DNA from: a virus
IMG/VR virus record: IMGVR_UViG_3300028908_000024
Span: 1 to 30,757 of that record
Strand: one strand, 5' to 3'
DNA: 30,757 nucleotides
Shown here: positions 2,472 through 30,757 of the stretch, piece by piece
Layout of the letters: every line of letters starts with the position of its first letter
Numbering within the stretch: the first letter of the stretch is position 1
The notes under the pieces: generated by a model
The model's input: the letters and a program-made list of their open reading frames with translations, nothing else
Told to the model about the DNA's origin: nothing
The model's database searches: none
Translations under genes and position numbers: made by a program

Positions 2472-2481
2472 GAGAGACATT

Positions 2482-3033
2482 ATGCCAACTTTTACCGCAG
2501 TTCCAACGCAGTCACCGGGCGACGAGTGGACAGCCGCCGACCAAAACACATACGTCAGGGATAATCTGCAGGCGCACCAAGATGCGCTACAGGACAGCGC
2601 ATTGCTGGCCGCAATCAAAAACGTGGATGGTTCGGGGTCTGGCCTGGATGCCGACACCGTTGATGGCGCTGAACCGTCCATTTCGAGCAGCGCCAATACT
2701 ATTGCACAGCGAGACGCCAACGGCGACATATCGACCAGCGCTGGCAAGGCGCTAGCCTCCAGCAAGGCTGGAGGTTTTATCCAGATAAAACAGGGGTCAG
2801 TGACGGTTCCCGCAGGTAGTGGGGCAGCGGATTATACTGTAAGCGTGACCTGGGATACGCCATTTTCTGATATCTATGGTGTTGTTACCGACATATCAAT
2901 CCAATACGAAACGACTAACACACACAAGGAATTAGTATTTTCTACGACTGGTGCGAGTAAAACTATCAATATATTCCGCATATCATCCTCCATTGTAGTG
3001 ACTGTGACGTTTATGGCATTTGGAGCTATATAG
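2482..3033 (+). CDS. Tail-fibre/tail-tip structural protein (183 aa)
   Basis: A good ribosome site (AGGAGAG) precedes the ATG, ten bases after the hub gene stop. The middle of the protein carries LDADTVDGAEPS followed by NTIAQRDANGDIST, a pattern common in phage tail-fibre and tail-collar proteins. The N-terminal part (WTAADQNTYVRDNLQAHQDAL) looks like the short helical segment many tail-tip proteins use to attach. The C-terminal 90 residues are Ser/Thr/Val-rich and predicted all-beta. It is probably a receptor-facing or fibre-adaptor component. Composition here is more balanced in G and C than in the head genes. Confidence 0.62.
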   Translation: MPTFTAVPTQSPGDEWTAADQNTYVRDNLQAHQDALQDSALLAAIKNVDGSGSGLDADTVDGAEPSISSSANTIAQRDANGDISTSAGKALASSKAGGFIQIKQGSVTVPAGSGAADYTVSVTWDTPFSDIYGVVTDISIQYETTNTHKELVFSTTGASKTINIFRISSSIVVTVTFMAFGAI

Positions 3034-3035
3034 TA

Positions 3036-3884
3036 ATGGCTACGTTAGAACAAGCATCATTGACCAATTTTTCACGCAATGCCATGGTCGAGCATGTTTT
3101 TGGCGTCGCGAGCTACACCCCCGCGACGACGATATATCTGGCGCTGTTGACGCAGATGCCGGATAACGATGACGATGGCAGTAGTATTAGCGAGAGTGGC
3201 GCCGGAGGTTATGCGCGCACGGCCATCACATTCGGTGCGCCGGTTGCTCATGCCGGAATCACGACAAATATCCGCATCACGCAAAACGCCACGGTCACAT
3301 TTCCTATCTTGACGTCAGAGATGACCGGGATTGTGGCGTGGGGGATTTTGGATAGCGCCACTATTGGCGCGGGGAATCTGTTAGCGTGGGGGCAATTGGC
3401 CAGTTATACAGTCGATGCGGGCGAGGCCCCGGCAATCGAGTCTGGTCAGATATGGATCGAAATCGAGGATGGCATGAGCAATTATATGGCTACGGCCATG
3501 CTCAATATGCTATTCCGTGGCGTCAGTTACACGCAGCCGACGATTTACATCGGGTTGGCGACAGCAGCCATCGCGGAAACCGATACCGGTAGTACGGTTA
3601 GCGAGCCGAGCGGCGGCGCTTACGCCCGGCAGGCTGTGAGTGGATGGATAGCCGATGACAGCAATGGCCAAGGCGTCAAAAATAGCGCCACGGTTACATT
3701 TGCGGAGGAGAGCGCCGCATCTGGCGGCGAGGATATTTACGGCGTCTTTGCCGCGGATGCGCTAACTGGAGGAAATATCCTGTATTACGATCCGTGGCTG
3801 GGTGGCAACGCCAAAACGCTGCAGCGGCACATGCAGGTCGATTTCGATGCAGGTAATATCGTGTGGAGGCATGAGAACACATGA
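3036..3884 (+). CDS. Tail-fibre protein with two tandem fibre domains (282 aa)
   Basis: It starts two bases after the previous stop. The protein is built of two related halves. Residues about 17-147 contain HVFGVASYTPATTIYLALLT, GAGGYARTAITF, VTFPI and NLLAWGQLASYTVDAGE. Residues about 155-278 contain LFRGVSYTQPTIYIGLAT, DTGSTVSEPSGGAYARQAV, VTFAEE and GNILYYD. The pattern 'LAL-T...GS-VSEPSGGAYARQ...VTFP...GNLL-W' is a recognisable repeated domain of phage tail-fibre proteins. No chaperone or enzymatic motif was seen. The two halves also match the N-terminal halves of the next gene, so the pair arose by duplication. Confidence 0.7.
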   Translation: MATLEQASLTNFSRNAMVEHVFGVASYTPATTIYLALLTQMPDNDDDGSSISESGAGGYARTAITFGAPVAHAGITTNIRITQNATVTFPILTSEMTGIVAWGILDSATIGAGNLLAWGQLASYTVDAGEAPAIESGQIWIEIEDGMSNYMATAMLNMLFRGVSYTQPTIYIGLATAAIAETDTGSTVSEPSGGAYARQAVSGWIADDSNGQGVKNSATVTFAEESAASGGEDIYGVFAADALTGGNILYYDPWLGGNAKTLQRHMQVDFDAGNIVWRHENT

Positions 3885-5536
3885 GCGCCGGGCAGCTATC
3901 GTTATACGCCAGCCAGTCTATTGTCGAGCATGTTTTCGGCGTCGCGAGCTATACTCCCGCGGCGAGTTGCTGGCTTGCGCTCTGCACCGAGATCCCGCGG
4001 GCCGGGGCGCTGAATGAAATCAGTGGCGGCGGGTATCAGCGGGCCGCCGTAAACTTCGAGAGCAGCGGGGCGCGCAGTTACGCCAATAATGGCGAGGTGA
4101 TGTTTTTCCGCCTGACCGGCGATGCCGGAGATGTGAAATACTGGGCTGTGATGGACGCGCAAACAGGCGGGAATTTGCTGGCCTGGGGCAGGTTTGACGT
4201 CTGGGTGACGGCAATGGATGCGGATGTGCAGATGACGATAGCCGCGGGAGAGATAGAGGTTAGCATCCGTGGCGGTGTAATGAGCGATTATTTGGCGGAT
4301 AAGGCGCTGGGTATGATACTGGGCCACACGAGTTACACGCAGCCGTCGATTTATGTCGGTCTGACGACCGCGACAATTGCAGATAATGATACCGGCAGCA
4401 CGGTGACGGAGTTGTCGGGTGCAGGATATGCCAGACAAAGTCTAAGCGATTGGTCCGCCAATAGCGTGCCGGGACTGGTGGATAGCGATAATACGGTGAC
4501 GTTTCCGTTAGCGTCCACGCCAGCGGGCGGAGAAACGGCTGTGGCGTCATTTGTGGCCGACGCCAGCAGCGGCGGGAATCTGTTATTTTATGACAACAAA
4601 ATGCCTGATACGGTGCTGGGACCAGTCGATCAGGCGGAATTTGCGGCGGGTGCGCTCGGGTATGGTCTATCATCGTCATTTGTAACAACTTGGCGGATTG
4701 CTGCAGATGGGGATAGCATCACGTTGCCGTTGTATAGTGGTTATAATTACGATTTTATCGTGGATTGGGGGGATGGCTCATCGTCCACGGTTACGGCATA
4801 TAATGATAGCGACCGCGTGCATACTTATGCGGTGGCCGGAGATTATCTGGTGACCATTCACGGCACGATGGAGGCGTGGAGTCATTACCATGCCGGGACG
4901 GACAAGACGCAGATTCGCGGCGTAGAGAATTGGGGGGCAATAGCGTTAAAGACCGGTTATCGCATGTTCCGCGAATGCACAAATCTGAACGGTGGCGCTG
5001 TCGATGCGCCTGACCTAACTGGTGCGACATTGATGCATACGATGTTTTATAAGGCCACCAGCTATAATCAGGATATGTCTGGCTGGGACGTGAGTAATAT
5101 CACATCGATGTATTTCGTGTTCGGTTATTGTAGCGCGTTCAACCAGGACATCGGCGGCTGGGATATAAGCAATGTTACGGATATGAGATATATGTTCTAT
5201 CATGCCAGCGCATTCGACCAGGACATCAGCGGTTGGGATACCGGCAACGTCACCAATATGTATGCTATGTTCTATTATGCCAGCGCATTCGACCAGGACA
5301 TCGGCGGTTGGGATGTAGCGTCTGTGACAAATATGGCATATATGTTTTCCGGCGTTACGTTGTCGACGGCGCATTATGATTCCTTGCTCATCGGCTGGGC
5401 CGCTCAAAGTGTGCAAACGGGCGTGACGTTTGACGCTGGCAATAGCAAATATACGGCTGGCGGCGACGCCGAGGCGGCGCGGACTGAGCTCATTAACACA
5501 TACGGATGGACCATCACCGATGGAGGCGCGGTATGA
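3881..5536 (+). CDS. Receptor-binding-type tail fibre: two fibre domains, PKD-like domain, BspA/DUF285 repeats (551 aa)
   Basis: The ATG overlaps the previous stop by four bases (ATGA). Residues about 1-270 repeat the two-domain plan of the preceding gene (IVEHVFGVASYTPAASCWLAL; SYTQPSIYVGLTTA; DTGSTVTELSGAGYARQ). Residues about 285-330 look PKD-like (FIVDWGDGSSSTVTAYN followed by HTYAVAGDYLVTIHG). Then four 25-residue repeats of the type 'MFYxASAFDQDIGGWDVSNVTN' form a BspA/DUF285 leucine-rich-like solenoid at about residues 388-487. A short domain with the 'YDSLLIGWA...FDAGNSKYTAGG' closing motif follows, as in bacterial DUF285 surface proteins. The modular plan suggests host surface recognition; this is inferred. 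Confidence 0.75.
   Translation: MSAGQLSLYASQSIVEHVFGVASYTPAASCWLALCTEIPRAGALNEISGGGYQRAAVNFESSGARSYANNGEVMFFRLTGDAGDVKYWAVMDAQTGGNLLAWGRFDVWVTAMDADVQMTIAAGEIEVSIRGGVMSDYLADKALGMILGHTSYTQPSIYVGLTTATIADNDTGSTVTELSGAGYARQSLSDWSANSVPGLVDSDNTVTFPLASTPAGGETAVASFVADASSGGNLLFYDNKMPDTVLGPVDQAEFAAGALGYGLSSSFVTTWRIAADGDSITLPLYSGYNYDFIVDWGDGSSSTVTAYNDSDRVHTYAVAGDYLVTIHGTMEAWSHYHAGTDKTQIRGVENWGAIALKTGYRMFRECTNLNGGAVDAPDLTGATLMHTMFYKATSYNQDMSGWDVSNITSMYFVFGYCSAFNQDIGGWDISNVTDMRYMFYHASAFDQDISGWDTGNVTNMYAMFYYASAFDQDIGGWDVASVTNMAYMFSGVTLSTAHYDSLLIGWAAQSVQTGVTFDAGNSKYTAGGDAEAARTELINTYGWTITDGGAV
5042..5341 (+). repeat. Four 75-bp repeats encoding DUF285 (BspA-like) units
   Basis: Units start at 5042, 5117, 5192 and 5267, each exactly 75 bp. 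Each encodes 25 residues beginning MF (VF in unit 2) and containing (N/D)QD(M/I)xGWD. Units 3 and 4 are the most alike at the DNA level (shared TGCCAGCGCATTCGACCAGG), suggesting recent unit duplication. Confidence 0.92.
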
Positions 5537-7898: not shown

Positions 7899-7982
7899 AT
7901 GACGATTGATGAGTTGCTTCTGGCGCTGTTGTTCGAGGTTCAAGGTTTGATGTTCAAGGTTTGGAGGCTGGTGGTTGGTTGA
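7899..7982 (+). CDS. Possible 27-aa hydrophobic mini-ORF containing a heptamer repeat
   Basis: TGAGGATG at the end of the endolysin gene gives ATG at 7899; the peptide is MTIDELLLALLFEVQGLMFK and seven more residues, ending VVG. About half of it is encoded by a 'GTTCAAGG'-type heptamer repeat, so the reading frame may be accidental. The next gene's ribosome site (GGAGG 7963-7967) is inside it. It is listed because nothing else occupies the gap. Confidence 0.22.
   Translation: MTIDELLLALLFEVQGLMFKVWRLVVG
7931..7962 (+). repeat. Heptamer-type tandem repeat (GTTCAAG family)
   Basis: Degenerate units of the GTTCGAG/GTTCAAG type (gttcgag gttcaag gtttgat gttcaag gttt). The same family recurs at 11849, 21356 and 25219, each time at a gene border. 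Confidence 0.8.
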
Positions 7983-10195: not shown

Positions 10196-10453
10196 ATGAA
10201 CGAAAAAACATTTCGCAGAGTTGGCGTCAGCCTTGATCGGCAGACAGAAAAAATTGTAAAAAATCTGAATGACGGTCTTGGGTTTTACAATTTCAGCGCG
10301 GCATTACGGTATATCATCAATGATTGGGCGAAGAAAGAGGGATGGGATTTTGAGCCGATTGATGATCTTGCCATTTCCCCCGCATCATCCCCTGCGAGCG
10401 ATGGCGATGATGACGGGGATATGACGATTTTAGCAGGCCAGGAGGGGGCGTGA
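10196..10453 (+). CDS. Ribbon-helix-helix-like early regulator (85 aa)
   Basis: ATG at 10196 is chosen; AAAGG lies seven bases upstream, and earlier in-frame starts would lie upstream of or inside the promoter region. The N-terminus (KTFRRVGVSLDRQTEKIVKN) followed by FYNFSAALRYIINDWAKKEG has the strand-helix-helix layout of Arc/MetJ-type DNA-binding proteins, here about residues 3-50. The C-terminus is acidic (SDGDDDGDM). As the first gene after the main early promoter it is placed like a Cro or an early regulator, possibly binding the TGACC sites in its own leader. Confidence 0.65.
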   Translation: MNEKTFRRVGVSLDRQTEKIVKNLNDGLGFYNFSAALRYIINDWAKKEGWDFEPIDDLAISPASSPASDGDDDGDMTILAGQEGA

Positions 10454-10956
10454 TGATGTGGGCGGATTCGGGACGGTTTTGGGCAGCGATGGGGGCGCTG
10501 GTGGTTTTCGGCGCGGGGTATAATGTGCTGGTGGACTGGCTGGAGCGGCGCGGGTATGAGGAGGGGTATGTGGGGCTGCTGGTGGTGGTGGGGGCGTTTG
10601 TGACGTTGCTGGGTCTGTGGTGGGTGTATGACCTGGCTGTGTTTCTGACGGCGCTGGGGTTGTTTGCGGCGAGTGGCGGGCCGATGGTTGCGGGGAGTAT
10701 CTTGCGGCATGTGCGGGCGCGGGAGCGGGGGATGGCTGCGGTGCGTGATGAGGTTGTTGGTGGGCGGCGGGTCACAGACCCGCCTGGGAGCGTCACAGAC
10801 CCGCCTGGGAGCGTCACAGACCCGCCTGGGAGCGTCACAGACCCGCCTGGGAGCGTCACAGACCCGCCTGGGAGCGTCGCAGACCCGCCTGGGAGCGTCG
10901 CAGACTCGCCTGGGAGCGTCGCGGCCTCGCCCGGTTGCATAGAGGGGGGTGCCTGA
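10453..10956 (+). CDS. Membrane protein with C-terminal VTDPPGS heptapeptide repeats (167 aa)
   Basis: ATG at 10453 overlaps the previous stop (TGATG) with GGAGG at 10441-10445. Residues about 1-90 contain two or three hydrophobic segments (WAAMGALVVFGAGYNVLV; YVGLLVVVGAFVTLLGLWWV; LAVFLTALGLFAAS). A short cytoplasmic-looking basic stretch (RHVRARERG) follows. The last about 55 residues are eight heptads: five VTDPPGS, then VADPPGS, VADSPGS and a decayed VAASPGC. The repeats are encoded by a 21-bp DNA repeat that begins inside a REP-like palindrome, so the tail is probably an insertion, not an ancestral domain. Function unknown. Confidence 0.62.
   Translation: MMWADSGRFWAAMGALVVFGAGYNVLVDWLERRGYEEGYVGLLVVVGAFVTLLGLWWVYDLAVFLTALGLFAASGGPMVAGSILRHVRARERGMAAVRDEVVGGRRVTDPPGSVTDPPGSVTDPPGSVTDPPGSVTDPPGSVADPPGSVADSPGSVAASPGCIEGGA
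10766..10791 (+). repeat. REP-like palindrome founding the 21-bp array
   Basis: Perfect 8-bp stem GGCGGGTC / GACCCGCC with loop ACA (10766-10784), then TGGGAGC. Its right half plus tail is the unit amplified in the following array. Confidence 0.82.
10771..10938 (+). repeat. 21-bp minisatellite, seven clear copies plus one degenerate
   Basis: Unit starts are 10771, 10792, 10813, 10834, 10855, 10876, 10897 and 10918. The first five copies are identical (GTCACAGACCC followed by GCCTGGGAGC). Copies 6 and 7 carry single changes (GTCGCAG, ACTCG), and copy 8 is decayed. There are no spacers, so it is not CRISPR. Divergence grows toward the 3' end. Confidence 0.95.
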
Positions 10957-11273: not shown

Positions 11274-11848
11274 CAGTTGAGAGTTCGGGGGCCGAAGTCA
11301 AAGGACCAGGGGCGTTGTCGCATTATGCGCTGGATGCGGAGCTGAGCCGTGAGGCGCGGCTGAAGCGGGCGCGTGTGCGGCGGGCTGCGGCTCGGGCTGC
11401 GGCTCGGGCTGCGGCTCGGGCTGCGGCTCGGGAGGCTGAGCGGCTGGGGCTGCGTGCAGGCGGCGGGTCACAGACCCGCCTGGGAGCGGGAGATTCGCAG
11501 TTGGGGTTGTTTGATGATTGGGTTGTGCATGAGATGGTGCAGCCTGATTTCGGTGATGAGGCGCTGACGCTGGATGAGCAGTTTGAGCAATGGATCCGTG
11601 TGAATCCGCATGTGCTGGATGAGTTTGTGCGGCGGGCGCGGATTTTGAAGGCCCAGGGGCTGAAGCGGTTCGGGGCGAAGGCGATCATTGAGGGGATGCG
11701 GTATGACCGGGCGGTGCGGACGGGTGGTGACAGTTTCAAGCTGAATAATAATTATACGAGCCGTCTGGTGCGGCTGGCGCTGGAGCGGGCGCCGGATCTG
11801 GCGGGGTTTTTCGAGCTGCGGGCGCTGCGGAAGGAGGTGCAGTGGTGA
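11270..11848 (+). CDS. Conserved phage protein with 'KLNNNYTSRL' signature (192 aa)
   Basis: ATG at 11270 overlaps the miniprotein stop. Residues about 30-55 are Ala/Arg-rich (RAAARAAARAAARAAAREAE), made by a 12-bp tandem repeat. A REP-like palindrome follows in frame (GGGSQTRLGAGD). The conserved domain occupies about residues 95-190: EQWIRVNPHVLDEFVRRAR, GLKRFGAKAIIEGMRYD, DSFKLNNNYTSRLVRLALE and APDLAGFFELRALRK. This pattern is widespread in phage early regions near replication or recombination genes, but its function is not established. The N-terminal expansion is a local oddity. Confidence 0.68.
   Translation: MTVESSGAEVKGPGALSHYALDAELSREARLKRARVRRAAARAAARAAARAAAREAERLGLRAGGGSQTRLGAGDSQLGLFDDWVVHEMVQPDFGDEALTLDEQFEQWIRVNPHVLDEFVRRARILKAQGLKRFGAKAIIEGMRYDRAVRTGGDSFKLNNNYTSRLVRLALERAPDLAGFFELRALRKEVQW
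11381..11428 (+). repeat. 12-bp tandem repeat, four copies (RAAA coding)
   Basis: Four exact copies of CGGGCTGCGGCT at 11381, 11393, 11405 and 11417, each encoding R-A-A-A in the surrounding frame. Confidence 0.94.
11462..11488 (+). repeat. REP-like palindrome, read in a different frame
   Basis: GGCGGGTC ACA GACCCGCC followed by TGGGAGCG, identical to the founder of the 21-bp array at 10766. Here it is read one frame over, giving GSQTRLGA instead of VTDPPGS. Confidence 0.9.
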
Positions 11849-12288
11849 GTTCAAAGTTCAATGTTCAAAATTCAAAGTCTACGGTATATGGGCCAATGTC
11901 GCCTGGTGATGTCGTTTTATTCCTGGAGTCCTATGGAGCTGATGTTATTGAGCATGGCGGCGCTATTGAATTGCGCTTCGGCGTTTTGGTTGATCAGTCT
12001 GACATCGATGCTGTGAAGTTGCTGAAGAAGAGGGCTCGTGAAAAGGCTGCAGAATCTCCTTCAGAAACAATTGATAAGGACCTGGCTGAGTTGCATATTC
12101 AACTGGCTGAGGCTATTTTGATGGCAGAAGCATTTGGTGGAGAAACAACCAAAAGTGCGATGAAGCGTTCTGACATTATGGTTTTGAGAAATAAAATTTT
12201 CTGGCTGACGGCATTGGCGGCTCATGTTGATTTTCTGGATGGAGGGGGGACGCCGGATTGGGAATCCGGCGGGGAGCGTGAAGAATGA
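11845..12288 (+). CDS. Early protein of unknown function (147 aa)
   Basis: GTG at 11845 overlaps the previous stop and has AAGGAGG at 11831-11837. An ATG at 11896 would remove a heptamer-repeat-encoded leader (SSKFNVQNSKS). The body starts MSPGDVVLFLESYGADVIEH, continues with charged helices (AVKLLKKRAREKAAESPSET; DLAELHIQLAEAILMAEAFGG) and ends with an in-frame REP palindrome coding TPDWESGG. Codon usage is more A/T-rich than its neighbours, suggesting a separate origin. No domain recognised; it directly precedes the replication initiator with ATGA overlap. Confidence 0.6.
   Translation: MSSKFNVQNSKSTVYGPMSPGDVVLFLESYGADVIEHGGAIELRFGVLVDQSDIDAVKLLKKRAREKAAESPSETIDKDLAELHIQLAEAILMAEAFGGETTKSAMKRSDIMVLRNKIFWLTALAAHVDFLDGGGTPDWESGGEREE
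11849..11880 (+). repeat. Heptamer-type tandem repeat inside a gene start
   Basis: Degenerate GTTCAAA/GTTCAAT/TTCAAAA units (agttcaa agttcaa tgttcaa aattcaa ag). It lies just after the GTG start of the 11845 gene and is translated. Confidence 0.75.
12251..12278 (+). repeat. REP-like palindrome supplying a ribosome site
   Basis: Perfect 9-bp stem CGCCGGATT / AATCCGGCG with loop GGG, then GGGAGCG. The GGGGAG of the tail lies eight bases upstream of the initiator ATG at 12285 and may act as its ribosome site. Confidence 0.8.
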
Positions 12289-13499
12289 GCGTTAAGATGA
12301 TGGGGCTGGTCTGGGAGTCGGCGCTGCCTCCGCGGCAGAAGCTGGTGGCGCTGGCGTATGCGGATCATGCTGATGATGAGGGGTATCATATTTATCCATC
12401 GGTGCGGCGGATGGCTGAAAAGACGGGGTATTCGGAGCGTTCGATCCAGCGGATTAGCCGCCAGCTGGAGACGCTGGGGGTGCTTGTGCTGGTGAAGAAG
12501 GGGCCGTTCGGGACGAATCATTATCGATTGGTGGCCAGTGCGTTGCCTGCGCACGGGGGTGACAGTTTGTCACCCGAATATGCTGGCCAAGGTGGGGGTG
12601 ACAATATGACACCCCCCGGTGACAATTTGTCACCCAATACGGAAGCAGGGGGGGGTGACAATTTGTCGGGGGGGGGTGACAAACACGACAGCGCGATTAG
12701 GGTGACAGATGCGACAGAATTTTTGCACGATTTGTCACCCGATCCATCAATTAACCTAAGAGAAACCATCAAAGAACCATCATCCTCTTCTTATGCACCT
12801 GATCGCGTTAATGCGACGGGGCGCGCTGGCCAGAAGGAGAGAGAGCAGGAAGGTGATGATGGATCGATTTTTGATGTCCTGGCTGAGCTGAACATTTTTG
12901 GGGGAGTGGCCAATGATGTGATCAATAAGTTTTATGTGGCGGCTGGCCGGACGCTGACGCAGGATGATGTGCGGGCGTGGGGGCGATGGCTGGATGCTGA
13001 GAATGCCCGCGGGCGGAATGTGACGCCGGGCCTGGTGGTGACGGCGCTGCGGGCTGGTCGGACGGCTGATGAGCGCTGGTATGAAGCGGCGGATGAGGCT
13101 GCCGGGGGGTTGATGGTGCTGGGGGATGAGGATGATGTGATGCCGCTGGATGAGGCGCTGGCTGTGGTGCAGCGGGTTGCGGATGAGATCGACGGGGCGG
13201 CGCCGATGGTGGGTGATGAGGATGAGGCTGTGCGCTGGTGGGAGGAGGCGATGACTGAGCTGCATGTTGCGTATGGTGGCCGCTATAATCGGCTGTTTGC
13301 GCAGACGCAACTGACGGATGCGGCCAATGATGAGCTGGTTGTGACGTGTGCGGATGAGTTGGTGCAGGCGCAGATGGTGCGGCTGCAGGGTCTGTTTAAG
13401 CGGCGGCTGGCGCGCATTGCCGGGCGTCAGGTGCGTGTGCGTTTTGTGACTTCGGCCTCGGCGATGGCGGGCGATGAGGTTCTGGAGGTGGCGGCGTGA
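12285..13499 (+). CDS. Replication initiator / replisome organiser with HTH and DnaA-N-like ends (404 aa)
   Basis: Residues about 5-85 form a winged HTH_36-type domain (LPPRQKLVALAYADHADDEG, IYPSVRRMAEKTGYSERSIQ, ISRQLETLGVLVLVKKG) found in phage replication initiators. Residues about 88-150 are a Gly/Asp/Ser-rich linker encoded by iterons (GGDNLSP repeats). A helical segment follows at about 195-265, with DVRAWGRWLDAENARG. The C-terminal about 75 residues (WWEEAMTELHVAYGGRYNRL; ELVVTCADELVQAQMVRLQG; VRVRFV) resemble the DnaA N-terminal domain, which recruits helicase. The plan, with ori repeats inside the initiator gene, parallels lambda O. The initiator call is strong; the helicase-recruiter role is inferred. 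Confidence 0.78.
   Translation: MSVKMMGLVWESALPPRQKLVALAYADHADDEGYHIYPSVRRMAEKTGYSERSIQRISRQLETLGVLVLVKKGPFGTNHYRLVASALPAHGGDSLSPEYAGQGGGDNMTPPGDNLSPNTEAGGGDNLSGGGDKHDSAIRVTDATEFLHDLSPDPSINLRETIKEPSSSSYAPDRVNATGRAGQKEREQEGDDGSIFDVLAELNIFGGVANDVINKFYVAAGRTLTQDDVRAWGRWLDAENARGRNVTPGLVVTALRAGRTADERWYEAADEAAGGLMVLGDEDDVMPLDEALAVVQRVADEIDGAAPMVGDEDEAVRWWEEAMTELHVAYGGRYNRLFAQTQLTDAANDELVVTCADELVQAQMVRLQGLFKRRLARIAGRQVRVRFVTSASAMAGDEVLEVAA
12557..12740. other. Probable replication origin: iteron array inside the initiator gene
   Basis: Copies of the half-site GGGTGACA, several paired as palindromes: GGGTGACAGTTTGTCACCC (12557-12575), GGTGACAATTTGTCACC (12618-12634) and GGGTGACAATTTGTC (12653-12667). 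Single sites lie at 12596, 12674, 12700 and (inverted) 12733. The DNA right after (12741-12815: ATCAATTAACC, AAACCATCAAAG, CATCATCC) is markedly A/T-richer than the rest of the gene, fitting an unwinding region. Confidence 0.82.
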
Positions 13500-14020
13500 G
13501 TCGGCGTGGCGGGATGCATGTGAGTGTGCGCCGGGTTGTGCCTGGTGCGGCTGTGCTGCGGGCGGCGCGGTTGCTGGATATGATGTACAAGCCGAGCGAG
13601 ATCGCGTATGAGCTGAAGATCCAGCAGCGGGCGATTTATGAGGTGCTGATTCCGCTGGGATTGCCGCATGAGCGGGATGAGCATGGGCATATCTGGCTGC
13701 ATGGTCCGGCGGTGCGGGCGTGGCTGGAGGTGGCGACCCGCGGGCCGAAATATGAGCTGGCCGATGATGAGTTGTTTTGTTTGAAGTGTTTTGAGCCCCG
13801 GTCCCCCTCCCAGCCTCCCCCGGGCCCCCTCCCAGCCTCCCCCGCAAGCGGGGGCGGAGCGGGGGCGGAGCTGGTGCGGAATGGACGGTTTGTGATGCTC
13901 CGGGCGACGTGCCCGGTCTGCGGCGCCGAGATGTATAAGGGCGTCGGTAAACGCATGGCGCGGCGTCTGGCGGCGTCGGGCCTGATCGATGAGAAAGATT
14001 TGGAGGTTTTTGATGTCTAA
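13496..14020 (+). CDS. HTH plus split zinc-ribbon protein (174 aa)
   Basis: GTG overlaps the initiator stop (GTGA), with GGAGG seven bases upstream. Residues about 22-75 look like a helix-turn-helix/excisionase-like fold: MYKPSEIAYELKIQQRAIYE, VLIPLGLPHERDEHGHIWLH and GPAVRAWLE. A zinc ribbon follows with CLKC (about residue 98) and CPVC (about residue 140). Between the two Cys pairs sits a low-complexity insert (SPSQPPPGPLPASPASGGGA) encoded by a C/G-tract palindrome. It could regulate early genes or act as a recombination directionality factor; this is not shown. Confidence 0.62.
   Translation: MSRRGGMHVSVRRVVPGAAVLRAARLLDMMYKPSEIAYELKIQQRAIYEVLIPLGLPHERDEHGHIWLHGPAVRAWLEVATRGPKYELADDELFCLKCFEPRSPSQPPPGPLPASPASGGGAGAELVRNGRFVMLRATCPVCGAEMYKGVGKRMARRLAASGLIDEKDLEVFDV
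13798..13867 (+). repeat. C/G-tract palindromic repeat inserted in the zinc-ribbon gene
   Basis: A duplicated GCCCCCTCCCAGCCTCCCCC-like segment is followed by the palindrome CCCCCGC AAGCGGGGGCGG and GAGCGGGGGCGGAG. It shares the 'CCCCC-GCARGCGG-GGG' core with copies at 20646, 28785 and 29272. Confidence 0.75.
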
Positions 14021-14297
14021 GCGATCTCGAAGGGCAAGGAATGCCAGGCGGGCCATAATGGCGGCGGCCTGGGATGAGCAGGCGGCGGAGGCGATGCCAC
14101 CGGCTGTCAGCGTTTCGCAGTTGCCGGTGGATGTTGGCGATGAGGCTGTGACGATGACGCCTGCGCCTGAGGCGTGGGAATCATCGGAAGAGCTGGATGA
14201 GCGGGAAAAGCGGATGGCGCTGGCGGCGGCGATTGTGTTGTCGGCCATCTGGCTGGCGCTGGCGTTCGGCGTACTAATTCCTCTGCTGAGAGGTTAA
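14013..14297 (+). CDS. Tail-anchored small membrane protein (94 aa)
   Basis: ATG at 14013 has GGAGG six bases upstream and overlaps the end of the previous gene. The N-terminus is very basic (SKRSRRARNARRAIM). An acidic, Pro-rich middle (MTPAPEAWESSEELDEREKR) leads to a single C-terminal TM segment at about residues 71-91 (LAAAIVLSAIWLALAFGVLI). Basic N-terminus in the cytoplasm and a C-terminal anchor are likely. It sits directly before a membrane-anchored ATPase and may be its partner; this is inference from position. Confidence 0.58.
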   Translation: MSKRSRRARNARRAIMAAAWDEQAAEAMPPAVSVSQLPVDVGDEAVTMTPAPEAWESSEELDEREKRMALAAAIVLSAIWLALAFGVLIPLLRG

Positions 14298-14320
14298 TCA
14301 GCGCAAAATGGGGGGGACCC

Positions 14321-15736
14321 ATGGAAAAGTTCATGTCGCTATTTTTTCTTGCTATCACATTCATCATCGGCTTGCCCGTCATTATGCTGACGGTGCGGGT
14401 GATGCTGTCGCCTGCGTTTGACCGGTTTGTTGGTGTACTGGCAGATGTGGCGACGATTATTGTCTGGGGCGGGGCTGTCAGTGTGGTGGCGATGATGATT
14501 GGGGGGGCTGTGTTTGTGCTGGGTCGGGCGATGGCTGCGACGTGGGATAAATTGGTGGATGCGCGGCATATTTGGCCGGATGCGAATGGCCAGTTTCCCA
14601 TCGTGAAGATGGACAAGGCGTATGCGGACCTGACGCCGGAGAGTGTGCGTCTGATGGCGAGTATGGTGGCGACGATGGGGGCGTTCGGGCAGAAGCCGAC
14701 GGCGGCGACGATTGGGCGGTTCATGCAGGAGGCGATCCCGCGGGCGATGGCGGATATAGAGATGCCACCTCTGCTGGATGATGAGGAGCAGATGGATGAC
14801 GGGTTCGATATCGGGCGTGTGGACCCGGTGACGGCTCCGCACTGGCTGTTCATCGGTCAGACGGGCAGTGGTAAGAGTACGGCGATGTTTACGGTGCTCC
14901 GGCAGTTGCGGGAGCGCTATGGGGCGGAGTTTGTGATCTGCGAGCCTGGGGGTGTTGACTGGAATGATCAGGCTGATTTCATCAGCTATGATGATATTGC
15001 TGGTGCGATCGAGGCGGAGTATGAGGTGATGAAGGAGCGGCAGGCGGCGTTGCGTGAGGCGGATGTGAATCATGTGAGCCGGATGCCTGATCCGCTGCCG
15101 TACCGGTATATGGTGCTGGAGGAGACGGATAGTTTGTTAGATAATCTGAGCCGGGACCGGGCGAAGGATGCGATTTTCCATTTGCGGGAGATCGCCCGGA
15201 TGGGCCGGAAGACGGGTATTGGTCTGATTGCGCTGAGTCAGACGGCGCTGGCGGATGTGTTCAATACGCATGTGCGCGGGAATCTGAGCAATGTGTATCT
15301 GTTTCGCGGGAGCCAGCAGATCGCGAGGATTTGGGGGGTGAGCAAGCTGGTGGATCTGCAGGCGTTGCAGCCGGGCCAGGCGTTCGATGTGAGTTATGAG
15401 CGTGTGGTGCAGTTTCCGATGGCTGAGCGCCCGGTGCTGAGTGAGTTGCGGCGTGGTGCCGGAGCGGTGCGAGATGGTGCCGGGCGTGTGCGGAGCGGTG
15501 CCAGCACCGGTAAAAATGGTGTCAGCACCGCCAGCACCGGGCGAAATGGTTCAGCACCGGTGGTGCTGGCGCCAGTGCTGCCACCTGGGCGGCGACCAGG
15601 GCATCGGGAGGCGGCGATGATGCGGGCCTGGTATCATGATGGTGTCAGTAAAACGGAGATTGCGAGACGTATCTGGGGCTATAAGAGTTCGGATGTGTGG
15701 CCCTGGGTGATCGATGCGATTGAGGGGAGGTTGTAA
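14321..15736 (+). CDS. Membrane-anchored FtsK/HerA-type ATPase with C-terminal HTH (471 aa)
   Basis: Two N-terminal TM segments lie at about residues 5-30 (LFFLAITFIIGLPVIMLTV) and 41-70 (ATIIVWGGAVSVVAMMIGGA). A motor domain follows with Walker A GQTGSGKST (about 179-187), FVICEPGG, a Walker B-like strand YMVLEETDSL (about 264) and the sensor region GLIALSQT. These are features of FtsK/SpoIIIE/HerA/TraG DNA translocases. A repetitive linker (about 390-425) leads to a helix-turn-helix end (MMRAWYHDGVSKTEIARRIW). Such ATPases pump DNA along or through membranes and are unusual in siphophages. There is no obvious ribosome site beyond GGGGGGACC. Confidence 0.75.
   Translation: MEKFMSLFFLAITFIIGLPVIMLTVRVMLSPAFDRFVGVLADVATIIVWGGAVSVVAMMIGGAVFVLGRAMAATWDKLVDARHIWPDANGQFPIVKMDKAYADLTPESVRLMASMVATMGAFGQKPTAATIGRFMQEAIPRAMADIEMPPLLDDEEQMDDGFDIGRVDPVTAPHWLFIGQTGSGKSTAMFTVLRQLRERYGAEFVICEPGGVDWNDQADFISYDDIAGAIEAEYEVMKERQAALREADVNHVSRMPDPLPYRYMVLEETDSLLDNLSRDRAKDAIFHLREIARMGRKTGIGLIALSQTALADVFNTHVRGNLSNVYLFRGSQQIARIWGVSKLVDLQALQPGQAFDVSYERVVQFPMAERPVLSELRRGAGAVRDGAGRVRSGASTGKNGVSTASTGRNGSAPVVLAPVLPPGRRPGHREAAMMRAWYHDGVSKTEIARRIWGYKSSDVWPWVIDAIEGRL
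15502..15559 (+). repeat. Four CAGCACCG octamers in the ATPase linker
   Basis: CAGCACCG at 15502, 15523, 15532 and 15552, inside a 30-bp imperfect direct repeat; CGGTGC elements lie upstream. The region codes for a Gly/Ser/Thr linker before the HTH domain. It could be a DNA binding cluster for the encoded ATPase or a simple coding repeat. Confidence 0.6.
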
Positions 15737-15737
15737 G

Positions 15738-16025
15738 ATGAAGCAGTGGCCAGATGTCGGAGGCCAGATTTCGGGGGCTGATGGCTGCGAGATGTCGTTT
15801 TGGGTGCGGCGATCGCAATTGCGGTGGGCACGGTATTTGGCGACGACTGAGCGGCCTCCGATAGCGTGGGATGATGGCCGCGGGGCCCGCGGATGGGTGC
15901 GGGCGTTTGCGGCGTTGTTTGGCTGGCGATTTGGTGATGTTTCCCGGTCCGCCCGCGGGCGGCGGTCCGTTTCTCATAAATCGGTCAAAAAATCATCATT
16001 CAAAAATGGGAGGATATCACGGTGA
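15738..16025 (+). CDS. Hypothetical basic protein (95 aa)
   Basis: ATG at 15738 has GGGGAGG seven bases upstream. The product begins MKQWPDVGGQISGADGCEMS, then SFWVRRSQLRWARYLATTER, and ends very basic (KSVKKSSFKNGRISR). The first codons contain an 'AGATGTCGGAGG' repeat element also found at 21414-21442. No family recognised; it overlaps the next gene by GTGA. Confidence 0.45.
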   Translation: MKQWPDVGGQISGADGCEMSFWVRRSQLRWARYLATTERPPIAWDDGRGARGWVRAFAALFGWRFGDVSRSARGRRSVSHKSVKKSSFKNGRISR

Positions 16026-16255
16026 AATGTGATTTCTGCGGACGTGAGTTCAAATTAAGTGCTGGAAGTTATCGGCTATTGCCGATTATGGACCTGCGGC
16101 AGTTTCCACCGAGGGGCGTCTATGCCTGTTCCGCCTGTGTGGATGCGGAGGGGGTTGAGGCGCTGGTTGATCAATGGTTTCTCGCTGCCGAAGGTGATCA
16201 GGTGCGATCGCAGCGGCGACAGGATATGATGACGCTAATGGAGGCGGCGGCATGA
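16022..16255 (+). CDS. Small zinc-finger protein (77 aa)
   Basis: GTG start overlaps the previous stop; GGGAGG lies upstream. The first residues give MKCDFCGREFKLSAG and, about 30 residues later, YACSACVDAEGVEAL, so two C-x2-C knuckles could bind one zinc. The C-terminal half is helical. It resembles many small phage zinc-binding proteins of unknown role. Confidence 0.58.
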   Translation: MKCDFCGREFKLSAGSYRLLPIMDLRQFPPRGVYACSACVDAEGVEALVDQWFLAAEGDQVRSQRRQDMMTLMEAAA

Positions 16256-16575
16256 GGTATCTGTTTCGTGTTCTGCCGATAATGGCGATCATTTTCCAGG
16301 CAGGCATATCCGGGGCGTGGTGGGCCGGGCAACTTACGGTCCCACTGCCTCCGGCCTGGGGCTGGTTTGGTGCGGGCATCATTGGTATAACGATACAGAT
16401 GGCTGATGCTGACCGGATCGCACCGGGCGAGCGGCGGTCATGGCTGGTCAATAATCCGGGCGCCTATTCTGTTGCCGAATTGGCCCGGCAATGGGGTGTC
16501 AGCGAGCGCACGGTGCGCCGTGATTTGGTTGCTGCCGGCTTCCATAAAAATGGCGATGGGAGGTGGCATCGATGA
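16252..16575 (+). CDS. Membrane-anchored helix-turn-helix protein (107 aa)
   Basis: ATGA overlap with the previous gene. Two hydrophobic stretches lie at about residues 4-28 (LFRVLPIMAIIFQAGISGAW) and 33-52 (PPAWGWFGAGIIGITIQM). A cytoplasmic helix-turn-helix follows (YSVAELARQWGVSERTVRRD, then LVAAGFHKNGDGRWHR) at about residues 70-107. The HTH matches the pattern of resolvase/DeoR-like DNA-binding tails. A DNA-binding domain tied to the membrane, encoded close to a membrane ATPase with an HTH, suggests membrane-linked DNA handling. Confidence 0.62.
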   Translation: MRYLFRVLPIMAIIFQAGISGAWWAGQLTVPLPPAWGWFGAGIIGITIQMADADRIAPGERRSWLVNNPGAYSVAELARQWGVSERTVRRDLVAAGFHKNGDGRWHR

Positions 16576-16817
16576 GTTGCTCGCCGAAGTCTCTGAAATG
16601 GAATCGGTATTCTGCCCTGCAATCTGGATGGCTGGCAGGTTATGGTGATTTGACTTATATCGTCGAGGAAACGCTGGGCCGATATCGGCTATCTGTGCAA
16701 TATGGTATCGGCGATCCGGGTTATCTGGGCTGGTTTAATAGCCTGGATGAGGCGAAGCGGCGGGCGCAATTCGATTTCGATCGCCAATTCGAGGAGATGC
16801 GTGATGATCAATCGTGA
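16572..16817 (+). CDS. Hypothetical small protein (81 aa)
   Basis: ATG at 16572 overlaps the previous TGA, with GGGAGG eight bases upstream. It reads SLKWNRYSALQSGWLAGYGD, then VEETLGRYRLSVQYG and LGWFNSLDEAKRRAQFDFDR. It is predicted beta-strand rich with a final helix, possibly a small two-layer fold. It overlaps the integrase start region. No family is named. Confidence 0.52.
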   Translation: MSCSPKSLKWNRYSALQSGWLAGYGDLTYIVEETLGRYRLSVQYGIGDPGYLGWFNSLDEAKRRAQFDFDRQFEEMRDDQS

Positions 16818-17829
16818 TAATTACATGGTGTTGCAGCAATATCTGAGATATCAATCTGAGGTGATGCTGCTTGCCGATGAAACGGTGTCACGCAAGGAGA
16901 ATCGCCTGCGGTATTTACTGATCTGGTCTGGAGAAATAGGTTTTGAAAAATGCCAGGCCATCCGGCCAGTTTTTCCGCGCTGGTTGGATGGTTCTGGCTT
17001 GCATGATATTGGACAGCGCCGGACATGCATGGATGTGCGGTCGTTTTTGATATGGCTTCGGAGACGCTGGCCGCGGCGATATCAATCACTGACTGATGAC
17101 TGGATTGAGACGATTCGTCCGGTGCGGGCGGTTATGCGGCCGCACGACGACCGTCAGATCGTGACCGTGGAGATGGTGCGGGCGCTGTTGGATGTGCCTG
17201 CCAATACGCTGGCAACACAGCGTGAACAGGCTGCTGCAGCAATGCTGTTTTTAAGCGGAATCCGGGCGCGGGCATTTGTGACACTGCCCATTCGGGCAGT
17301 TGATATGGATGAGTTGATCGTGCTACAGTATCCTGAGCTTGGTGTGGAAACAAAAACAAAAAAGGCCATCAAAACAGCATTATTGCCGATTGACGACCTG
17401 ATTGATGTTGTGCGGGCCTGGGATATGTTTGTGCGAAATGAGCTCCCCCCTCATGCATTATGGTGGCCAGTAATGCGTAGTCATAATGGCATTATCCGCC
17501 TGGCTAATGAATCACCAGGCGTACATCGTGATAGCGTATTGCGGCGGCGGTTGGCTGGTCTATTTCGTCGTGCGGGCCTGGCCCCATTGAGTCCGCATAA
17601 GTTTCGCCATGGTCACGCAGTCTATGCGCTCAAGCGGGCAAAGACGATGGCGGATCTGAAGGCGGTAAGCCAGAATTTGGGACATGCGAATATAGGTATC
17701 ACTGATGGCATTTATGCTGTGCTAGGAGATGCTGATGTGGCAGGGCGGATCGCCGGATTGGGCACCATGACAGAAGAAGATGATAAGCTCACCCGTCTCA
17801 TACAGATATTGGAGGATAGATTGCTATGA
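16804..17829 (+). CDS. int: Tyrosine recombinase / phage integrase (341 aa)
   Basis: ATG at 16804 has GAGGAG six bases upstream; a longer frame upstream overlaps the previous gene and is not used. Residues about 1-110 fit an N-terminal SAM-like core-binding domain. The catalytic domain shows Arg154 (SGIRARA), His265-x2-Arg268 (HKFRHGHA), His294 (NLGHANIG) and the nucleophile Tyr304 (IYAVLG), the R-H-R-H-Y set of the family. It would recombine the phage attachment site with the host copy. The attachment core is 49 bp downstream of its stop. The second Lys of the active site was not located with certainty. Confidence 0.9.
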   Translation: MINRDNYMVLQQYLRYQSEVMLLADETVSRKENRLRYLLIWSGEIGFEKCQAIRPVFPRWLDGSGLHDIGQRRTCMDVRSFLIWLRRRWPRRYQSLTDDWIETIRPVRAVMRPHDDRQIVTVEMVRALLDVPANTLATQREQAAAAMLFLSGIRARAFVTLPIRAVDMDELIVLQYPELGVETKTKKAIKTALLPIDDLIDVVRAWDMFVRNELPPHALWWPVMRSHNGIIRLANESPGVHRDSVLRRRLAGLFRRAGLAPLSPHKFRHGHAVYALKRAKTMADLKAVSQNLGHANIGITDGIYAVLGDADVAGRIAGLGTMTEEDDKLTRLIQILEDRLL

Positions 17830-17877: not shown

Positions 17878-17914
17878 GGTCGGGGCGAGAGGACTTGAAC
17901 CTCCGACCTCACGG
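17878..17914 (-). other. attP: Attachment core (attP): 3' part of a tRNA-Pro
   Basis: On the minus strand the segment reads as a tRNA 3' end: variable bases AGGTC, T-arm GGAGG TTCAAGT CCTCT, acceptor strand CGCCCCG, then ACC. The GTCGGAGGTTC and CGCCCCGACC features match bacterial tRNA-Pro. Upstream (18 bases beyond) the anticodon arm is not tRNA-like, so only a fragment is present, as in phage attachment sites that restore a host tRNA gene. It is next to the integrase. Confidence 0.8.
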
Positions 17915-18033
17915 ACGGATGTTCTAGTTCTCTCAACGGTATGATAATTCTTGGGAATTTTATTCATTTCGTACGAATAGATTTCGGTGATCACTACTGT
18001 TCCTTATGTAAGAATCGAAACGGATGTGCTATA
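17915..18033 (+). other. Short intergenic region after attP
   Basis: This 119-bp stretch is A/T-richer than the genome. It contains the perfect palindrome TTCGTACGAA (17968-17977), a possible integrase or excisionase arm site. An extended -10-like TGCTATAAT (18027-18035) overlaps the nuclease start. Confidence 0.35.
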
Positions 18034-18885: not shown

Positions 18886-19259
18886 TGGCGAAGGATGCTG
18901 GCCTGGCGCAAGCGGTAGCGCAGGGCATTCGTAATGCTCAGGGTCCCGGTTCGAATCCGGGGGCCAGCTCAAGGGCGTATGGCGAGAGCGCCCTAGCAGC
19001 CGGGGGTGTGAGTGGTGAGGCTGTGGGGTCCGACCGGCTGCGGCTGCGGGCCGGTGATGCGCCGGATGGGGGTGGTGTCCCCGGTGATGGCGCATTGCTG
19101 GCCGGTAGTTTGATGGAGGAGGATGACGGGAGGAGCCGCGGGGGCGAGGGGCCGGTGGTGGTGCGGTGCAGTGTGTGCGGGCGGCCTCTGCGGTCTGCGG
19201 AGAGTATTGCGCGGGGGATGGGGCGGGATTGCTGGCGGAAGAGCAGGGGGAAGAGATGA
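18882..19259 (+). CDS. ORF with C-terminal Cys-rich DUF6011-like domain; overlaps a tRNA gene (125 aa as drawn)
   Basis: ATG overlaps the terS stop (ATGA) and has GGAGG upstream. However, codons 6-30 (AQAVAQGIRNAQGPGSNPGA) are the tRNA-Thr gene read as protein. The only recognised part is the end: VVVRCSVCGRPLRSAESIAR, GMGRDCWRK, a C-x2-C...C motif with the 'CGRPL-SIA-G-G--C' pattern (DUF6011-like). GTG at 19008 or ATG at 19113 would give 83 or 48 residues without the tRNA. I suspect the tRNA entered the front of an older gene, or translation starts downstream. Confidence 0.55.
   Translation: MMAKDAGLAQAVAQGIRNAQGPGSNPGASSRAYGESALAAGGVSGEAVGSDRLRLRAGDAPDGGGVPGDGALLAGSLMEEDDGRSRGGEGPVVVRCSVCGRPLRSAESIARGMGRDCWRKSRGKR
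18897..18969 (+). tRNA. tRNA-Thr, anticodon CGT
   Basis: A complete cloverleaf folds with no mismatch: acceptor GCTGGCC / GGCCAGC; T8; D-stem GCGC / GCGC with loop AAGCGGTA (GG present); anticodon stem GGGCA / TGCTC, loop TTCGTAA; variable loop AGGGT; T-stem CCCGG / CCGGG with loop TTCGAAT. The anticodon CGT reads ACG (Thr), and G1-C72 plus C2-G71 fit Thr identity. The discriminator is T, and CCA is not encoded. It was missed by a simple ORF view because it lies within a frame. Confidence 0.93.
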
Positions 19260-21355: not shown

Positions 21356-21442
21356 AGTTCGAGGTTCAAAGTTGAAAGTTCAAAGTTGAAAGTTCGAGGT
21401 TCCAGGGTCCGATGTCGGAGACCAGAGGTCAGATGTCGGAGG
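21356..21442 (+). repeat. Heptamer tandem repeat plus 'AGATGTCGGAGG' repeat
   Basis: GTTCGAG/GTTCAAA/GTTGAAA heptamers (21356-21401), then a GTCCGATGTCGGAGACCAGA block and GGTCAGATGTCGGAGG. It sits between terL and a small membrane-protein gene. Confidence 0.8.
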
Positions 21443-25218: not shown

Positions 25219-25294
25219 GAGTTCGAGGTTCTAAGTTCGATGTTCAAGGTTCCAAGTTCAAGGTTCAAGGTCTGAAGTTCGAGGTTCTAAGTTC
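25219..25294 (+). repeat. Heptamer tandem repeat between portal and protease
   Basis: Units GTTCGAG GTTCTAA GTTCGAT GTTCAAG GTTCCAA GTTCAAG GTTCAAG follow each other. The array fills the whole gap and provides only a weak GAGG before the protease ATG. Confidence 0.88.
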
Positions 25295-25296
25295 TT

Positions 25297-30483: not shown

Positions 30484-30757
30484 GTACGCTGGCGACGCTG
30501 GTTGTGCGGCTGAAGGCCGATACGGGGGATTTCTCGAAGGGGATGAAACACGCGGAGGGTGCGGTGAAGCGCGCCTCGGCGACGATGAAGAAGACGGGGC
30601 TGGCGATGACGGCGGGGATTACGGCGCCGCTGACGGGGATTGCGGTGGCGGCGATCAGGGCGGGGGAGAGTCTGGACCGGGGGATGGCGAACGTGGCGAG
30701 TCTGGGGGTGGCGACGGAGCGGGTGCAGGAGCTAAAGTCGGGCGTGCAGGACCTGGC
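30480..30757 (+). CDS. Tape-measure protein, N-terminal part (3' truncated by window edge)
   Basis: ATG at 30480 overlaps the previous TGA (ATGA). The first 92 codons read STLATLVVRLKADTGDFSKG, MKHAEGAVKRASATMKKTG, then ITAPLTGIAVAAIRAGESLD and MANVASLGVATERVQELKS. This is a standard tape-measure N-terminus with a TP901-type core start (MANVASLG). The gene runs off the end. Its continuation should resemble the fragment at 1-828, but the two do not join directly in frame. Confidence 0.9.
   Translation, partial: MSTLATLVVRLKADTGDFSKGMKHAEGAVKRASATMKKTGLAMTAGITAPLTGIAVAAIRAGESLDRGMANVASLGVATERVQELKSGVQDL

What the first reader, a model, noticed from the sequence alone, without database searches (positions are those of the whole stretch)
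14013..16575. Membrane-linked DNA-handling set: FtsK-like ATPase and two anchored small proteins
The early region encodes a two-TM FtsK/HerA ATPase with a C-terminal HTH (14321-15736), a tail-anchored basic protein directly upstream (14013), and a two-TM HTH protein downstream (16252). FtsK-type pumps are rare in siphophages but central in actinomycete integrative conjugative elements, which likewise combine a Rep, an FtsK-like translocase and an integrase, in some cases targeting tRNA-Pro. This may be a phage/conjugative-element hybrid or a new membrane-bound replication or partition system.
Basis: partly seen in the sequence, partly recalled or inferred. Interest (0 to 1): 0.75.

Follow-up and report, generated by a model that had tools for sequence, protein, structure and literature searches.

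The report
Plasmid-type DNA pump in Chloroflexota phage
A temperate tailed phage of filamentous Chloroflexota bacteria carries, beside its replication gene, a membrane-anchored DNA-pumping motor of the kind that conjugative plasmids use, and the same replication-gene/motor pair sits in virus-free integrated plasmid-like elements of the same bacterial order, so the phage appears to share a DNA-handling cassette with plasmids.

Summary
The ATPase (14321-15736) has two N-terminal transmembrane helices, an intact FtsK/HerA motor and a C-terminal helix-turn-helix (HTH). It lies between a C-terminally anchored 94-aa protein and a TM-HTH protein, in a Rep-to-integrase operon. The window is a nearly complete temperate siphophage with its own terminase. 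Its attP is the 3' end of tRNA-Pro(CGG), matching one order of Anaerolineae/Caldilineae (Chloroflexota), and all three real ATPase relatives lie in that order. Two sit in integrated elements without visible phage genes: tyrosine recombinase, Rep, ATPase and, on the longer contig, zinc finger and ParA. Their Rep shares its C-terminal domain with the phage Rep. All these rep genes carry iterons inside the gene, as lambda O does. A sister element has Rep and ParA but no ATPase, so the motor is an optional add-on. The nearest solved structure is TcpA, a conjugation coupling protein. The phage/integrative-element hybrid idea is supported at the level of the cassette; a true ICE is not (no relaxase or type IV secretion genes found). 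Most likely it is a TcpA/TraB-like double-stranded DNA translocase acting on the circular element, used for transfer or cell-to-cell spread. That function is inferred. New variant of a known kind.

The parts
14321..15736 (+). FtsK/HerA-type ATPase, 471 aa: two N-terminal TM helices, motor (Walker A GQTGSGKST, Walker B acidic pair EE), C-terminal helix-turn-helix (about residues 428-467)
14013..14297 (+). 94-aa protein with one C-terminal TM segment; basic only at its N-terminus
   Evidence: GGAGG ribosome-binding site 6 nt before the ATG; no relative found
16252..16575 (+). 107-aa membrane protein with HTH; shortened version of a TM/coiled-coil/HTH protein found in the host order
16022..16255 (+). 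77-aa zinc-finger protein, probable homologue of the zinc-finger gene of the plasmid-like elements
   Evidence: 27% identity, pairwise E 2e-6 and 5e-6; conserved C-x2-CG ... PP ... C-x2-C ... W pattern
12285..13499 (+). lambda-O-like replication initiator (Rep); winged-helix N-terminus, C-terminal domain (about residues 178-282) shared with Reps of the plasmid-like elements
12555..12743 (+). iteron array (GGGTGACAATTTGTCACCC palindromes) inside rep: presumed origin of replication
13496..14020 (+). 174-aa protein, HTH-like N-terminus (by inspection) and C-terminal zinc-ribbon-like cysteines, between Rep and the anchored protein
   Evidence: weak Pfam matches only
16702..17829 (+). tyrosine integrase (true start probably ATG 16804)
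17879..17916 (-). attP core: 38 bp identical to the 3' part of tRNA-Pro(CGG) of Anaerolineae/Caldilineae
10771..10920 (+). 7 x 21-bp tandem array (CAGACCCGCCTGGGAGC core); an eighth core at 11471-11487 lies in another gene in another reading frame; candidate DNA site for a DNA-binding protein (speculative)

Best explanation
The segment is a plasmid/ICE-type DNA-handling cassette carried by a temperate siphophage of an Anaerolineae/Caldilineae order. SHOWN: the anatomy (two TM helices, FtsK/HerA motor, C-terminal HTH), the operon with a lambda-O-like Rep whose iterons lie in the gene, the partner membrane-HTH protein, the tRNA-Pro attP, and the sharing of Rep domain, motor and zinc-finger gene with integrated plasmid-like elements of the same order. 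INFERRED: the ATPase forms a hexameric ring under the membrane, is loaded on the excised circular element by its C-terminal HTH (helped by the TM-HTH protein, as SpdB-type proteins help TraB), and pumps double-stranded DNA at the membrane, so that the phage genome can move as a plasmid-like circle: through a septum or into a neighbouring cell of the filament, or to a partner conjugation channel. I favour a transfer or spread role over partition or replication, because a sister element keeps Rep and ParA but lacks the motor.
For: ATPase relatives: L060 41% over 7-466 (E 6e-87), L062 33% (E 5e-42), L061 32% (E 7e-38); the next matches are chromosomal FtsK at about 1e-8. Motif residues are invariant. 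The four form one group apart from host FtsK and from plasmid or phage FtsKs (support 90/94). L061 and L062 elements: divergent tyrosine recombinase, Rep, ATPase, DUF, and in L061 also zinc finger, ParA and RHH, with no phage structural gene visible. Rep C-terminal domain: found in 3 of 396 Anaerolineae genomes, in two of them one gene upstream of the ATPase. Iterons inside all four rep genes. The sister element L090 has serine recombinase, Rep, zinc finger, ParA and RHH but no ATPase. Nearest known structure by sequence and by fold: TcpA of pCW3. TM-HTH partner: G203, which holds the closest ATPase, is the only one of 20 genomes with a match. An actinophage carries a DUF2637 membrane protein next to a TM-bearing FtsK ATPase. 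SpdB2 is a membrane DNA-binding protein that interacts with TraB (PMC4170104). TraB-only transfer is known from multicellular actinobacteria (PMC5704250), and filamentous multicellular Chloroflexota are documented (PMC7332563).
Against: No transfer has been shown, and no relaxase or type IV secretion gene was seen. The phage is held as one record; no second phage with this ATPase was found in IMG/VR, so conservation within phages rests on the 5-kb contig L060, whose phage nature rests on one PHROG match. The absence of the motor from one element (n = 1) is thin ground for choosing transfer over maintenance. A clt-like loading site is only a candidate. Structure models were poor (pLDDT 40-43). 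That this particular order is filamentous was not checked.
Confidence: 0.45

Rival explanations
1. Intracellular maintenance: the ATPase segregates or resolves multimers of the excised or replicating phage circle, as FtsK does with XerCD, perhaps working with the tyrosine recombinase of the element.
For: The phage and both ATPase-bearing elements that show a recombinase have a tyrosine recombinase; the element without ATPase has a serine recombinase. Host FtsK is the next-best homologue. C-terminal HTH recalls the FtsK gamma domain.
Against: L061 and L090 carry ParA and RHH for partition, and L090 does without the motor. No dif-like site was sought or found. Tiny sample.
Confidence: 0.25
2. 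Mobilisation coupling protein, as in IMEs of Firmicutes: the ATPase feeds the element's DNA to a type IV secretion channel of a co-resident conjugative element.
For: Best solved homologue is TcpA. 83 streptococcal IMEs encode an RCR-initiator relaxase with a TcpA coupling protein (PMC5704250). Small plasmids such as pSMQ173b carry a MOBT Rep followed by a two-TM FtsK.
Against: The Rep is lambda-O-like with in-gene iterons and no relaxase domain in Pfam or PHROGs; no relaxase means no single strand to couple.
Confidence: 0.1
3. Replication or membrane-tethering factor: the ATPase is recruited by Rep to the origin and acts in theta replication.
For: Gene lies directly in the rep operon; the rare Rep C-terminal domain and the ATPase are neighbours in two elements and near neighbours in the phage.
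Against: L090 has the same Rep domain and iterons but no ATPase. FtsK-type motors are not known as replicative helicases.
Confidence: 0.1
4. DNA packaging motor or host-division interference (moron).
For: PHROG 2666 (terminase large subunit) matches weakly, E 3.6e-7; the best PHROG is filed under 'moron, host takeover'.
Against: A canonical small and large terminase, portal, protease and capsid are present; the motor is in the early rep-int operon; its kin sit in elements without visible phage genes.
Confidence: 0.07

Closest known systems
TcpA coupling protein of pCW3 and Orf21-type coupling proteins of Tn916-like elements
   Same: FtsK/HerA motor; N-terminal TM helices and similar size in the homologous plasmid protein of pSMQ173b; best PDB match by sequence (E 5e-4) and by Foldseek (E 5e-4)
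   Different: Works with a relaxase and a T4SS channel, neither seen here; about 22% identity; the window protein has a C-terminal HTH
TraB of Streptomyces conjugative plasmids and AICEs
   Same: Single FtsK-like dsDNA translocase with C-terminal DNA-recognition domain, encoded with a Rep, small membrane DNA-binding (Spd) proteins and, in AICEs, an integrase at a tRNA; multicellular host
   Different: Sequence similarity weak (26% over 172 residues to pIJ101 TraB); no shared clade in the tree; no clt site shown; Rep of another type; Chloroflexota; virion genes present
FtsK plus replication-relaxation gene pairs in Bacillus phages and prophages (phage Silence, L083)
   Same: FtsK-like ATPase beside a replication-type gene in a tailed phage or prophage-like record, in L083 also with a tyrosine integrase
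   Different: No TM segments in Silence; different Rep family (Replic_Relax in L083); motor in another part of the tree
ICEth1/TdtA of Thermus thermophilus
   Same: Integrated element at a tRNA 3' end with a HerA-type ATPase as DNA-donation motor and no described T4SS (PMC5365140)
   Different: HerA/NurA setting and dependence on natural competence; not a phage; homology not tested here
Chromosomal FtsK/SpoIIIE
   Same: Same motor family and motif set; next-best homologues (E about 1e-8)
   Different: Different N-terminus and different C-terminal DNA-binding domain; forms a separate group (98/99)

Membership tests
FtsK/HerA-superfamily DNA translocase | Walker A, Walker B and the downstream FtsK-type R-x2-RK-x-GI ... 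Q motif | tested here: met
   GQTGSGKST, VLEE, ARMGRKTGIGLIALSQ conserved in all four relatives; Pfam FtsK_SpoIIIE 24.2 bits in frame, cut-off 24; 2.5e-8 for L060
FtsK/HerA-superfamily DNA translocase | ATP-driven dsDNA translocation by a hexamer | not testable with these tools
   needs biochemistry
TcpA-type coupling protein | N-terminal TM helices plus FtsK-like motor | tested here: met
TcpA-type coupling protein | Encoded with a relaxase (MobT or other) | tested here: not met
   Rep is lambda-O-like (PHROG 391, 270; HTH_36), iterons inside the gene; no relaxase family among the window proteins scanned
TcpA-type coupling protein | Serves a type IV secretion channel | tested here: inconclusive
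   no T4SS gene among the scanned window proteins or the L061/L062 proteins seen; a helper element cannot be excluded
TraB / AICE transfer system | Integrase + Rep + FtsK-like translocase + small membrane (Spd) proteins | tested here: met
   all four kinds of gene present; functional equivalence untested
TraB / AICE transfer system | Translocase homologous to TraB more closely than to other FtsKs | tested here: not met
   pIJ101 TraB ranks below host FtsK, phage and staphylococcal FtsKs and lies outside the window's group (long branches, weak support)
TraB / AICE transfer system | clt: short repeats bound by the C-terminal domain | tested here: inconclusive
   a 7 x 21-bp array with an eighth copy in another gene and frame exists; binding unknown
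Tailed temperate phage (siphovirus-like) | Terminase, portal, protease, capsid, connector, tape measure; integrase and repressor | tested here: met
Integrated plasmid-like element of this Anaerolineae order (L061, L062, L090) | Rep with shared C-terminal domain and in-gene iterons, zinc-finger gene, recombinase | tested here: met
Integrated plasmid-like element of this Anaerolineae order (L061, L062, L090) | ParA and RHH partition genes (L061, L090; L062 contig too short) | tested here: not met
   no ParA seen among the window's scanned proteins

The most novel reading that the evidence does not exclude
A tailed temperate phage that can also spread as naked double-stranded DNA from cell to cell in a filamentous Chloroflexota host, with a TraB-like one-motor transfer system (ATPase 14321, TM-HTH protein 16252, a loading site such as the 21-bp array at 10771) shared with virus-free integrative plasmids of the same order. 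This would be one-protein conjugation outside the Actinobacteria and inside a virus.
Probability: 0.2. Interest if true: 0.85.

Novelty: new variant of a known kind. Interest (0 to 1): 0.52.

Why it matters
Phages and conjugative plasmids are usually treated as separate routes of gene transfer. Here a Rep/membrane-motor cassette is shared between a tailed phage and virion-less integrated elements of one bacterial order, and a sister element without the motor provides a natural comparison. If the motor moves phage DNA between cells of a filament, infection could spread without lysis or virions. TraB-type one-protein transfer is so far described only from mycelial Actinobacteria; filamentous Chloroflexota would be a natural second place to look. 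Even if it only stabilises the episome, it identifies a mobile-element cassette with a rare Rep domain in hosts whose mobile elements are little described.

Tried and rejected
Packaging motor: rejected, because the phage has its own terminase. Relaxase-type Rep: rejected, because lambda-O-like PHROG matches and in-gene iterons point to theta replication. Matches at E 1e-7 to 1e-9: four (L056-L059), of which the two read out (L056, L059) are chromosomal FtsK, so all four were set aside. L055 (446 aa, no TM seen, similar C-terminal HTH, chromosomal-looking surroundings) was left out of the family. Peptide-pattern scans of IMG/VR with the ATPase alone, with A2, A3 and with the TM-HTH pair found no relative; A1 gave only the actinophage L064. 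The attP core was absent from other IMG/VR contigs. Phage and plasmid collections held only remote FtsKs, and the TM-HTH protein had no phage hit. The 94-aa anchored protein could not be linked to the 58-aa one of L060. Idea of a dispersed host repeat for the 21-bp array: the 17-bp core is absent from 20 genomes of the order. The heptamer repeats (AGTTCAA) near gene starts were not used as evidence.
Full report
WHAT THE WINDOW IS. The window is one IMG/VR virus record of 30,757 bases without terminal repeats. It encodes small and large terminase, portal, head protease, capsid, connector, tape-measure protein and a phage-type repressor on the minus strand, plus a tyrosine integrase and an HNH endonuclease. 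The left end begins in the C-terminal part of a tape-measure protein and the right end stops in the N-terminal part of what looks like the same gene (by inspection), so the genome is probably circularly permuted and nearly complete apart from a gap in that gene.

HOST. Downstream of the integrase, 17879-17916 (minus strand) is identical over 38 bp to the 3' part of tRNA-Pro(CGG). The 15 genome contigs sharing 38 or 39 bp are all Chloroflexota, mostly titled Anaerolineae or Caldilineae/Caldilineales. The seven such genomes I took as handles all fall in one order of 20 held genomes. The same order contains a prophage fragment with structural genes like those of the window (L076).

THE OBSERVATION. 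The ATPase at 14321-15736 has two N-terminal hydrophobic helices (7-25, 46-64), an FtsK/HerA motor and a C-terminal three-helix HTH, which even the poor single-sequence model shows with pLDDT 60-80. Walker A is GQTGSGKST; the Walker B acidic pair is EE. The 94-aa protein upstream (14013) has a C-terminal TM and a basic N-terminal tip but is not basic overall. The 107-aa protein downstream (16252) has an HTH above the Pfam cut-off and one clear plus one weak TM.

RELATIVES. Peptide-pattern scans found nothing close in IMG/VR or GTDB contigs. Searching 396 whole Anaerolineae genomes gave three real relatives: L060 (41%, residues 7-466), L062 (33%) and L061 (32%). Weaker hits were chromosomal FtsK where read out, apart from L055, a TM-less protein with a similar C-terminal HTH. 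All three relatives lie in the host order just named. Motif residues are invariant. In a tree of 18 FtsK-like motors the window, L060, L061 and L062 form one group (90/94), apart from host FtsK, from staphylococcal and streptococcal plasmid FtsKs, and from Bacillus phage FtsKs; deeper branches are unsure. Among solved structures the best match by sequence (E 5e-4) and by fold (Foldseek E 5e-4, probability 1.0, from a low-confidence model) is TcpA, the coupling protein of the conjugative plasmid pCW3.

WHAT TRAVELS WITH THE ATPASE. L061 and L062 are parts of integrated elements: a tyrosine recombinase, then on the other strand Rep, ATPase and a conserved DUF; the longer L061 contig adds a zinc-finger protein, ParA and an Arc-type RHH protein. 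No phage structural gene was seen. Their Rep shares a domain of about 90 residues with the window's Rep (E 4e-10 pairwise). A profile of that domain matches only 3 of 396 genomes: G003 and G224, where it lies one gene upstream of the ATPase, and G006. The G006 element (L090) has a large serine recombinase, Rep, zinc finger, ParA and two RHH genes but no ATPase. So the ATPase is an optional module on a family of plasmid-like elements. The zinc-finger protein of the elements is probably homologous to the window's 16022-16255 protein (27% identity, pairwise E 2e-6). Gene order Rep, ATPase, zinc finger is thus shared between phage and elements. L060 also looks like a phage fragment: besides the ATPase it carries a 58-aa anchored protein, an HNH gene (by inspection) and a phage protein (phrog_4652, E 5e-49).

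ORIGIN. The window's rep gene contains palindromic iterons (GGGTGACAATTTGTCACCC) at 12555-12743: four hits to the palindrome within 117 bp; 7 in the whole window against 0.85 expected, and 0 of 100 shuffles reach it. The rep genes of L061, L062 and L090 carry their own, different iterons between the N-terminus and the shared domain. This is the lambda-O arrangement and points to theta replication. It argues against Rep being a relaxase.

THE TM-HTH PARTNER. Of the 20 genomes of the order only G203, the genome with the closest ATPase, encodes a relative of the 16252 protein, on another short contig: a 247-aa protein with several TM segments, a coiled coil and an HTH, 56% identical over the first 70 residues. 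The window protein looks like a shortened form. Independently, an actinophage contig (L064) has a DUF2637 membrane protein with a long C-terminal extension directly before a TM-bearing FtsK ATPase. In Streptomyces plasmids the integral membrane protein SpdB2 binds DNA and interacts with the FtsK-like TraB (PMC4170104). These are parallels in arrangement; homology between them was not found.

MECHANISM. What is shown is anatomy and company. From the established behaviour of FtsK, TraB and TcpA motors I infer a membrane-bound hexamer that is loaded by its HTH and pumps dsDNA of the excised circle. Partition is an unlikely main job, because L061 and L090 have ParA/RHH and L090 does without the motor; replication likewise, because L090 has the Rep. 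Transfer or spread is the simplest remaining accessory function. The integrase + Rep + FtsK-like motor + small membrane protein set is that of TraB systems, which are described from multicellular Actinobacteria (PMC5704250), and filamentous multicellular Chloroflexota exist (PMC7332563; not checked for this order). A dimer-resolution role with the tyrosine recombinase is the strongest rival: the phage and both ATPase-bearing elements use tyrosine recombinases, the ATPase-less one a serine recombinase, but this is one contrast.

A CANDIDATE SITE. 10771-10920 holds seven 21-bp repeats whose 17-bp core occurs an eighth time at 11471-11487, in another gene and another reading frame. The same DNA in two frames suggests that the DNA, not the peptide, is kept. 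It is absent from 20 genomes of the host order. Whether Rep, the ATPase or a regulator binds it is unknown.

COMPARISON WITH THE KNOWN. It works like a TcpA or TraB motor as far as anatomy tells, but it is not a member of either system: no relaxase or T4SS was seen (TcpA), and it does not group with TraB. FtsK-plus-replication-gene pairs already exist in Bacillus phages (Silence; a B. subtilis prophage-like record) and in small Firmicutes plasmids, so the kind is known. New here are the Chloroflexota setting, the two-TM plus HTH motor in a phage, and the shared cassette with virion-less elements of the same order.

VERDICT. Observation confirmed; interpretation partly supported; new variant of a known kind; moderate interest, rising sharply if transfer is shown.

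Noticed in passing
window 1-828 and about 30470-30757: Both ends of the record lie in tape-measure coding sequence, so the genome is probably circular or permuted with only part of that gene missing.
   Followed up: partly
window 10771-10920 and 11471-11487: Seven tandem 21-bp repeats plus an eighth copy of the 17-bp core in another gene and reading frame; not found in 20 genomes of the host order.
   Followed up: partly
window 10450-10956: Another apparently multi-TM early protein (by inspection) whose C-terminal VTDPPGS repeats are encoded by the 21-bp array.
   Followed up: no
window 18897-18970: ARAGORN calls a full tRNA-Thr (CGU) between the small and large terminase genes, overlapping a spurious extension of the next ORF; a possible phage tRNA.
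   Followed up: no
L090 4827-10750 (G006): Integrated element with large serine recombinase, HTH, lambda-O-like Rep with seven in-gene iterons, zinc finger, ParA and two RHH proteins; sister of L061/L062 but without the FtsK-like ATPase.
   Followed up: yes
L064 8293-10978: Actinophage contig with a DUF2637 membrane protein directly upstream of a TM-bearing FtsK ATPase with C-terminal HTH.
   Followed up: partly
L055 (G160) 1486-2826, minus strand: 446-aa FtsK-like protein without obvious TM helices but with a C-terminal HTH resembling the window's (GYKNGDVWAWLEEAL), in a chromosomal-looking setting.
   Followed up: partly
window 7931-7961, 11848-11878, 21356-21395, 25220-25295: Heptamer repeats (AGTTCAA type) near four gene starts; similar FNLQPST-coding heptamers occur in L060, even inside its ATPase gene.
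   Followed up: no
window 5132-5346: 75-bp tandem repeats in the putative tail protein 3881-5536 (BspA-like repeats, by inspection).
   Followed up: no
L077 (S. warneri p5GD01), L078 (pSMQ173b), L085: Small 4.4-4.7 kb Firmicutes plasmids in which an FtsK-like gene makes up about a quarter to a third of the plasmid; in L077 and L078 it follows a Rep gene.
   Followed up: partly
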